From NCBI GenBank assembly GCA_020746105.1, contig CM036617.1, positions 170,962,412-171,026,411 on the forward strand: DNA of 64,000 nucleotides. Reading direction: 5' to 3'. The notes beneath the pieces are model-generated. The model was not told the origin of the DNA. It saw only the letters and a program-made list of their open reading frames with translations, and ran no database searches. Origin of the DNA: Trogon surrucura (lineage: Eukaryota; Chordata; Aves; Trogoniformes; Trogonidae). This document shows positions 31,471 to 34,400 of this stretch, in pieces; position 1 is the first letter of the stretch, and every line of letters begins with the position of its first letter. A program made the position numbers and the translations under genes.

Positions 31471-34400
31471 CTCCTGAAACCCTGCAGTGGAAAGCGAAGA
31501 AGCCGTTCATCTGTCTCAGCGGCTTTAACTCTTTAACACGTCAAAACGCGCATCCGCCTTTTTTCGCGACGGGGTCCCCCTGTTGGCCTGTGCTCAGCTT
31601 TGGATGCCCTCTGGCTCTGGTGGCGTTTTCTGCAGAATTAATTGCAGCCTTCTGTGCCAGTGGTGTCTCTGCACTTTGTTCTTCAGGCACAGAACCTGGG
31701 GAGGCGTTAGCTCACTCGGTTAGAGAGTGGTGCTGATAACACCGAGGTCGCGGGTTCGATCCCCGTTGGGTCCCCATGTGTTGCCTGATCTAGTTGAGAG
31801 GCGTCCCTGCCCACGACAGGGAGGTTGGATTAGATGATCTCTAAGGTCCCTTCCAGCCTAGGCCATTCTATGACTAACCTTGCACCCATCCACATTTAGC
31901 TTTCTCCTGTTTTTTGGGTTTTTTTCCCCTATTCACATATCATCTCTACCTTGTGAAGAGTGTTTTGAATTGTGATACTGACGGGTGTTTTGCATTGTGA
32001 TACAGCTTGCAGCTCCTCCCACGTAGGAGGAGGTGTAAATTGACAAAGGCACTCTTTTTTTTTTCTGTTGTTCAGACCTTTGGTGAAACATAGGGTGGAA
32101 GTCTGAATGGTATGTGATCCAAATTTGACAGTGTCAGTAACCTGAGTTATTTTTGTAGATGGTTTCGGGACGGTAATAGAACATTTCTTCAGGGTACAGT
32201 GAATGTTGTAGGCCTGGCCACGTAGCCAGAAACCCTTTTCTTAATCAATAGTGGGAAGTCAGGAGTGTGGGATAAGGAGGATTTACAAAGGTAAAATTCC
32301 TGCTATATATGAAGGGCTTTCTTACACTAGGGGGAATAAGCCAAGTTTTCTGAGCCTTCTTGAACATTTTTTTTTCCCAGTCATCATATTAGTACTTTTT
32401 CTGTTATTTTTTGTAGTTTAAATTGATCTGTTTTGAGTAGTTAAACATAGTATTTTATATGGTTGTTGATCAGGCCTCATAAGTATTTCCATGCAGTGGC
32501 TTTAGTACTTGCTTTCTTCACTGAATGCAGCTCAGTTCACCTGGCACATCCTAGGATCAGCTTGTCTTTTCTGCCCCACATGTGACTTAATTGGCATCAC
32601 ATTATTGCCTTGTGGCATCCAGATGTTTTCCTTGTGATTACACACACAGTGCTTCAGATCTTCCTAGTCCCGACGTGCGTCACCTTGTGCTATGACCTTC
32701 ATACTGCTGAATTTCATTCTGGTGGTCTTGCTCCAGCCCTGAAGGCAGCAGAGAGCTCCCTGTGCAATAATGTGACCTTCCTCTGTAGGGTAATGTCACA
32801 GTCTGTCAGGCCCCTGTGCTTTTTCACGGTGGGGTTTCTGTTTTGGTCAGGAACCCTGTAAAGTGTTGAATAAGGCTACTGACATCAGCATTCTCTGTGG
32901 AACTTCACTAGTAACCTTCGGTCAGCTCTGTGTTTCTTCTTGCAGCTGAGCATATTGATCCCTTTACAGTTATTACAGATTTTAATTAATTTTCTCATTT
33001 GTTTTGTGGCACAATATTGTATGTTTTTCTGAAGTCAGCTTGGCATTCGGGAGGTTTCAACTTTATATTCCTACTAGCTGTGGTGACAGACAGCTTCTGG
33101 CCGTTCTGTCTCCACTGTAAAAAGCAGCTCAGATAGACCTTGCATAACTTTTTAGAAGGAAATTTCAAGCTATTAAGCAGTATAAATTGAGACAATATGT
33201 AATTTCCCTGGCTAGTATTTTGTTATTTTTATTTTCTGTTATTCCCTCCTAGCTGGCTTATGCTGTAGCTGTTGCAGTGGCAGTTGTCAAGAAGAAGTAG
33301 AGCCGGGGAAATGAAAGTGTAGAAGAGTTTGAGTCTTAGGTTTCACCAGAGTGCCTCTTCCTCGGCATGTCTTCACTGACATCTTGTCAGGGAGCTTTTG
33401 TGTGTCAAAGATGAGAGGCTGTGCTGACACCTTTCTACCACGCAGGAAAAAGGAGCAGACAAGGCTGGAGACAGGGCTCCTTTTTTCTTTCAGAAGACTG
33501 AAGGTAGAAGAGAGATGTGCTCTGTAGAGAATCACACCTGATCCTCATAGCCGTACCTACCACAAACACAGCTACTGCCTCCCCTTCACGTTCCAGCCAC
33601 TAAATCTTCTGTCCCAGCTCACTGGGCTGCACAGGAAGAGTAATCAAGGTGTATCTGTCTTGTAACACTTGGTATGTTTAAGAGGTGATTACTGGTAACT
33701 TGGAAAAATTATTTACCCAAGTCAGGAAATTTTTTTCTCTGCAAGGTTTTTATTCTGAATTTCCCTGCTTTTCTCTGTTTCCCTCTGAGGTGGGAAGGTT
33801 TTGTGCAGTAGAAGTCCAGTTTTAAAAGAGCGTGTGCCTGGAAACATTCTCCTTAATCAGGATTCAGTGAAGTTATCTGGAAAGTGTCCTCTGGAAGCCA
33901 TAAGTAGTTCTTAGTGTTTGGTATCAGTATTTGGGGCATGAAGAATGGACAAGAGCACAAGAACCCTTACAAGAAAAGTAGGGGAAGAAGGAAGGAGAAG
34001 CAGCAGTGAAATGGCTTTTCTTTTTTCTGCAGCTGGGAGCTCCAGCTCAGATAGCTCAGCCAGAGATCTTTAAGTGTTTCCTTGGCAGAGGAGAGCTGTG
34101 GCAGAGAATCTTTCTGCCCGAGACCACAGAGGTTTAAAATGAATACCTGGTGGAGTGATTGTTGTTTTTTTGCATCTTGGGAGAAAAGGCAATAAAAAAA
34201 CCACTTTGTCTTTTGTTACGTAGTTAGACTCTCAACTGCAAGAGCATGCAAGTGCACGTCCTGGTTTAGTTACTGATACGTACAATAATGTTAAAATACA
34301 CTCTGTATAAAAAGTTGCAGCTGGTATATACCTTATCTGGAGTGGCAAAGCAAACGCTTGCATCTTTCACAGTTACAGAAAAGCTAGAAACTAACCATTG

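What the first reader, a model, noticed from the sequence alone, without database searches (positions are those of the whole stretch)
31697..31874. tRNA-Ile-headed, CR1-tailed SINE family: best copy, with two more at 37370-37544 and 54914-55091
Three dispersed elements have the same two-part build: a tRNA-Ile-like head with pol III A and B boxes and an Ile GAT anticodon arm, joined to about 95 bases of CR1 3' end. SINEs are rare in birds, so three in 24 kb of one locus is notable. The tails are more alike than the heads. The design implies mobilisation by CR1 enzymes recognising the shared tail. It resembles TguSINE1 from memory and may be that family or a relative.
Basis: partly seen in the sequence, partly recalled or inferred. 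Interest (0 to 1): 0.75.

Follow-up and report, generated by a model that had tools for sequence, protein, structure and literature searches.

The report
CR1-copied tRNA-Ile SINE family
The three repeats are real members of a large family of short jumping genes in what appears to be a bird genome, each a tRNA-like promoter fused to the tail of the bird's CR1 jumping gene; the kind is known from perching birds, but this family differs from the published one and probably sits in a bird that is not a perching bird.

Summary
Confirmed: three same-strand SINEs (31697-31876, 37373-37544, 54914-55091), each a tRNA-Ile-like head plus about 98 nt of CR1 3' end. The family is genome-wide: 7999 sites for the 24-mer at the start of its tail (<=2 mismatches, reversed control 0) and 1668 for a 41-mer spanning head and tail (<=3 mismatches, control 0). 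Of 70 sampled copies, 43 start in the first 25 bases and 27 are 5'-truncated. Two head subfamilies share one tail. A CR1 subfamily in the same genome carries that tail behind CR1 sequence.
It does not match TguSINE1 as published: the TguSINE1 primer is exact in 0 of 30 sampled A heads and 0 of 100 listed head matches, and the host's chromosome 1 appears unsplit, unlike passerines (recalled). The bird was not identified, and one paper likely to list further bird SINEs was not held. Three copies in 24 kb is unremarkable at this density. Verdict: new member of a known kind, likely a separate family from TguSINE1.

The parts
31697..31876 (+). SINE copy 1, subfamily A, near full length, with private variants shared by a single twin on contig C2
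   Evidence: (2.6% non-CpG divergence from consensus)
31697..31777 (+). tRNA-Ile-like head of copy 1 (A box about 31708-31719, B box GGTTCGATCCC 31753-31763), to the start of the 24-mer
   Evidence: box positions read from the sequence, box consensus recalled
31783..31876 (+). CR1-derived tail of copy 1, from GCCTGATC to the ATTCTATG motif
37373..37544 (+). SINE copy 2, subfamily B head, first ~8 bases missing, in intron 3 of NDUFA12
   Evidence: (2.6%); 3' end approximate
54914..55091 (+). SINE copy 3, subfamily A, 4-nt gap in the D arm and altered B box, downstream of NDUFA12
   Evidence: (4.5%)
4865..5431 (+). CR1 LINE 3' fragment (ORF2 end plus 3' end) whose tail is related to, but less like, the SINE tail
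   Evidence: alignment score 59 versus 80-94 for ten fetched CR1 copies; naming as CR1 by eye
30805..45892 (+). NDUFA12, exons near 30805-30890, 34950-35035, 36018-36107, 45713-45892; copy 1 lies in intron 1 and copy 2 in intron 3, both in the sense direction
   Evidence: exon 2; all four by peptide match; exon edges approximate

Best explanation
A CR1-mobilised, tRNA-Ile-headed SINE family of a bird that is probably not a passerine. The head carries an internal RNA polymerase III promoter (A and B boxes) that makes a short RNA. The last ~98 nt of that RNA equal the 3' end of a CR1 LINE subfamily in the same genome, so the CR1 reverse transcriptase binds it and copies it into new sites by target-primed reverse transcription, often stopping early (5' truncation) and ending in ATTCTATG repeats. 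Copy 1 belongs to a two-member lineage in which one recent copying event took place. Shown here: anatomy, site counts, tail shared with CR1, 5' truncation, twin with unrelated flanks. Inferred: pol III transcription, CR1 enzyme recognition, priming, and independence from TguSINE1.
For: 7999 tail 24-mers and 1668 junction 41-mers, reversed controls 0. Sample of 70 copies: 43 start within the first 25 nt (30 A, 13 B), 27 are truncated further in, and a CR1 motif directly upstream was found in 0 of 70. CR1 copies with the same tail: ten fetched loci, nine with CR1-type sequence for about 300 bases upstream and one (L113) for less, by eye. Divergence from consensus without CpG: A mean 3.8% (n=30), B 4.4% (n=13). 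Twin at C2:25448311, 1 difference in 180 nt, flanks unrelated by blastn over 1.5 kb each side; with <=1 mismatch allowed, only these 2 of 15 sites carry both head variants. Both consensus heads fold as cloverleaf-like RNAs, and their end stems differ by a G-C to A-U swap that keeps the pair (consensus). Small excess of short matches between the two flanks, as short target-site duplications would give (mean 4.07 versus 3.75, 1 of 200 shuffles reaches it, n=73). Host outside passerines: NDUFA12 (window), RB1 at C1:32.4 Mb and beta-type globins at C1:0.35-0.37 Mb share one 222-Mb contig.
Against: No expression data. No long target-site duplication is visible. The fold energies of head A and of the tail are no better than shuffles (z -0.54 and -0.67; head B -2.72). 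Pairing of the end stem copy by copy exceeds shuffles only slightly (93.6% versus 91.6%, 87 of 2000 shuffles reach it, 20 copies). The Cor2 passerine locus was not found with the published primer, which decides nothing. The sample of 70 is confined to 32 Mb of one contig and to exact 24-mers, so divergences are biased low.
Confidence: 0.85

Rival explanations
1. It is TguSINE1 itself, or a young branch of it, in a passerine.
For: Same build: tRNA-Ile head, CR1 tail, ATTCTRTG end (PMC5729268). TguSINE1 was active longer in suboscines, and a further CR1-mobilised tRNA-Ile SINE subfamily is reported from a finch (PMC6523648, passages).
Against: TguSINE1 primer exact in 0 of 30 A heads and 0 of 100 listed matches; PittSINE head at only 2 sites; chromosome 1 unsplit (with recalled map positions). 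About 2000-2500 copies reported per passerine genome against 7999 24-mer sites here, though counting methods differ.
Confidence: 0.12
2. Heads are genuine or pseudo tRNA genes with CR1 fragments that happen to lie beside them.
For: ARAGORN and Rfam call a tRNA in copy 1.
Against: The same junction recurs at 1668 sites with control 0; sampled copies have different flanks.
Confidence: 0.01
3. The window copy and its C2 twin arose by gene conversion or DNA duplication, not retrotransposition.
For: Near identity with an unusual shared 5' end (TGGGGAGGC).
Against: Homology stops at the element ends on both sides; no flank match in 1.5 kb either way.
Confidence: 0.1

Closest known systems
TguSINE1 (zebra finch, Eupasseres)
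   Same: tRNA-Ile head, CR1-derived tail, ATTCTRTG microsatellite end (PMC5729268, parts 1-3 of 4 read; also a table row in PMC3747384, passages)
   Different: Head reads CACTCGG where the TguSINE1 primer reads CAGTTGG; probably a non-passerine host; apparently younger and more numerous (different methods); relation of the tail to CR1-X1_Pass not testable here
PittSINE (Old World suboscines)
   Same: CR1-mobilised, tRNA head
   Different: tRNA-Asp head; its published primer matches 2 sites here, neither exact
Tortoise Pol III/SINE (turtles)
   Same: tRNA head with CR1 tail
   Different: tRNA-Lys head, PsCR1 partner (table in PMC3747384, passages)
AviRTE-mobilised bird SINEs (ManaSINE1, GymnSINE, BuceSINE, ManaSINE2, MeloSINE)
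   Same: SINEs of birds, some in non-passerines
   Different: mobilised by AviRTE, not CR1; other heads (passages of PMC4844689)

Membership tests
tRNA-derived SINE | tRNA-like head with A and B boxes | tested here: met
   box motifs recalled and read by eye
tRNA-derived SINE | many dispersed copies with the same head-tail junction and different flanks | tested here: met
tRNA-derived SINE | transcription by RNA polymerase III | not testable with these tools
   no expression data
CR1-mobilised SINE | 3' end nearly identical to the 3' end of a CR1 LINE in the same genome | tested here: met
CR1-mobilised SINE | ends in ATTCTRTG-type repeats | tested here: met
   consensus; individual copies
CR1-mobilised SINE | CR1 enzyme copies it | not testable with these tools
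   needs an assay
TguSINE1 | tRNA-Ile head | tested here: met
   copy 1; consensus; comparison with tRNA-Ile genes partly recalled
TguSINE1 | head carries the published primer CAGTTGGTTAGAGCGTGGTG | tested here: not met
   exact in 0 of 30 sampled A heads and in 0 of the 100 listed of 281 matches
TguSINE1 | tail with four diagnostic nucleotides relative to CR1-X1_Pass | not testable with these tools
   sequences are in a figure and supplement not held
TguSINE1 | host in Eupasseres | tested here: inconclusive
   unsplit chromosome 1 argues against; species not named
PittSINE | tRNA-Asp head CTCGTTAGTATAGTGGTGAGTGTC | tested here: not met
   2 sites, with 1 and 2 mismatches, in the genome

The most novel reading that the evidence does not exclude
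A second, independent birth of a tRNA-Ile/CR1 SINE in birds, outside passerines, larger (about 8000 sites) and younger than TguSINE1, with two head subfamilies and with copying that continued until recently, one traceable pair including the copy inside NDUFA12 intron 1.
Probability: 0.5. Interest if true: 0.55.

Novelty: new member of a known kind. Interest (0 to 1): 0.42.

Why it matters
The 2017 study (PMC5729268) proposes that early passerines were unusual among birds in giving rise to active SINEs. A large family of the same design (tRNA-Ile head, CR1 tail) elsewhere would mean that the design arose more than once. It would also give thousands of insertion markers for that bird's order, and a natural test of which CR1 3' ends the enzyme accepts.

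Tried and rejected
Naming the bird: the Cor2 passerine locus by one published primer (2 hits, both with 3 mismatches; reversed control 6; the second primer absent beside both) gave nothing. Globin exons against the PDB: for beta the best chain is 2r80; for alpha six tandem human chains rank first, then 3dhr and 2r80 lead the bird chains. I recall these entries as pigeon; the match is too distant to place the bird.

Scans of viral contigs and genome contigs for the exact 24-mer found 0 stretches each, so no host clue by contamination.

Literature: eight of ten paper searches used. No listed title or abstract start names a CR1-mobilised SINE in a non-passerine bird, but PMC8665684 (passages) cites Ottenburghs et al. 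2021 beside Suh et al. 2017 for CR1-mobilised SINEs in only some birds. I tried one DOI for it from memory and no paper was held, so 'undescribed' is not claimed.

Considered and dropped: subfamily B as a head from another tRNA. B differs from A by 4 substitutions and 4 single-base indels and shares the CACTCGG motif, so it is more simply a derivative.

Weak results: target-site duplications and copy-level stem pairing.

Full report
Its size and the CR1 repeats indicate a bird (inference).

The three elements are at the stated places, all on the + strand. Copy 1 is the best kept: it alone is called a tRNA, Ile with anticodon GAT, and it alone reaches the Rfam tRNA cut-off. Copies 1 and 2 lie in introns 1 and 3 of NDUFA12, in the sense direction, and copy 3 lies beyond its last exon.

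They belong to a large family. The 24-mer at the start of the tail has 7999 sites with up to 2 mismatches and 0 for the reversed control. A 41-mer spanning head and tail has 1668 sites with up to 3 mismatches and control 0. I examined 70 of the 100 listed exact 24-mer sites, all from the first 32 Mb of C1, so the sample is neither random over the genome nor free of bias towards well-kept copies. Of these, 43 start in the first 25 bases of the head and 27 are truncated further in. A CR1 motif directly upstream was found in 0 of 70, so the 24-mer counts this SINE rather than CR1. Frequent 5' truncation is the usual trace of LINE-type reverse transcription (established knowledge).

There are two head subfamilies, A (tRNA-Ile-GAT-like) and B, which differ by 4 substitutions and 4 single-base indels and share one tail consensus. 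Copies 1 and 3 are A, copy 2 is B. Mean non-CpG divergence from consensus is 3.8% for A (n=30) and 4.4% for B (n=13). At a recalled neutral rate near 2e-9 per site per year that is very roughly 20 million years, and the sampling biases it low. The 40 best matches to the A consensus are 97-99% identical.

The partner is visible. A CR1 pattern with the same tail start but CR1 sequence upstream has 1981 sites (up to 2 mismatches, control 0). In ten loci picked from that list the tail aligns to the SINE tail with scores of 80-94, against 59 for the CR1 at 4865-5431 of the window, and homology begins at GCCTGATC. By eye, nine of the ten have CR1-type sequence for about 300 bases upstream; in L113 it is shorter.

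Copy 1 has one twin. C2:25448311-25448488 (L002) differs at one base (31754) in 180 nt, shares its odd 5' end (TGGGGAGGC), its head variants and its 3' end, and has unrelated flanks. Of 15 sites within one mismatch of a 28-mer holding both head variants, only these two are exact; the other 13 lack one variant. Copies with more mismatches were not counted. One of the two was therefore copied from the other, or both from a third locus, and recently compared with the family's mean divergence. The shared new 5' end may be flank captured when a 5'-truncated source was transcribed from its internal promoter; that is inference.

TguSINE1 membership fails on the one published sequence feature that I could test. 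The primer reported as TguSINE1-specific is exact in 0 of 30 sampled A heads; one has a single mismatch, 20 are closer to the CACTCGG form, 7 tie and 3 are closer to the primer. In a search with the tRNA-Ile pattern, which contains the primer's core, 281 sites have up to 3 mismatches; of the 100 listed none holds the exact primer, and of the 85 with up to 2 mismatches 76 read CACTTGG or CACTCGG. The canonical tRNA-Ile-AAT anticodon arm (recalled) has 0 exact and 3 one-mismatch sites. PittSINE's head is absent as a family (2 sites).

The host is probably not a passerine. NDUFA12 (window), RB1 (C1:32.4 Mb; 81 bits to retinoblastoma protein against 40 to its nearest relative) and beta-type globins (C1:0.35-0.37 Mb) lie on one 222-Mb contig with the order and spacing of chicken chromosome 1 (positions recalled). 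Passerines have that chromosome split (recalled). The species was not identified.

Results against or weak: fold energies of head A and the tail are like shuffles; stem pairing by copy exceeds shuffles only slightly; flank matches show a small excess but no clear long duplication.

Clustering is unremarkable: about 186 windows of 64 kb with three or more copies are expected in this genome.

Published comparison rests on PMC5729268 (parts 1-3 of 4 read), on passages of PMC8665684, PMC6523648, PMC3747384 and PMC4844689, and on search listings.

Noticed in passing
L006, L036, L043 (upstream of the SINE); weaker at window 54895-54914: Seven of 105 SINE site hits have a second head-like stretch upstream by a loose test (control 2 of 94); three of them are clear 19-20 nt tandem repeats of the element's first bases (AGGGGGCTGGTTAGCTCAC), as if the reverse transcriptase had slipped or restarted at the 5' end.
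   Followed up: partly
whole genome: No exact match to the canonical tRNA-Ile-AAT sequence (recalled) was found in the held assembly. The listed near matches look like SINE heads, but most were not read in context. The genes may be missing from the assembly or differ in this bird.
   Followed up: no
G000:C1:3106400-3485668: Five CR1 3' ends with the identical 35-mer GAGCAGCCTGATCTAGTTGAGAGGCGTCCCTGCCC lie within 380 kb, a local cluster of the likely partner CR1 subfamily or a segmental duplication.
   Followed up: partly
G000:C1:353144 and 362958: Two beta-globin-like genes with nearly identical exon 2; the second, compared with the PDB, is only distantly matched by the best bird beta chain.
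   Followed up: no
31697-31705: Copy 1 and its twin begin with TGGGGAGGC instead of the family's AGGGGGCTG, which could be captured flank of a truncated source copy.
   Followed up: partly
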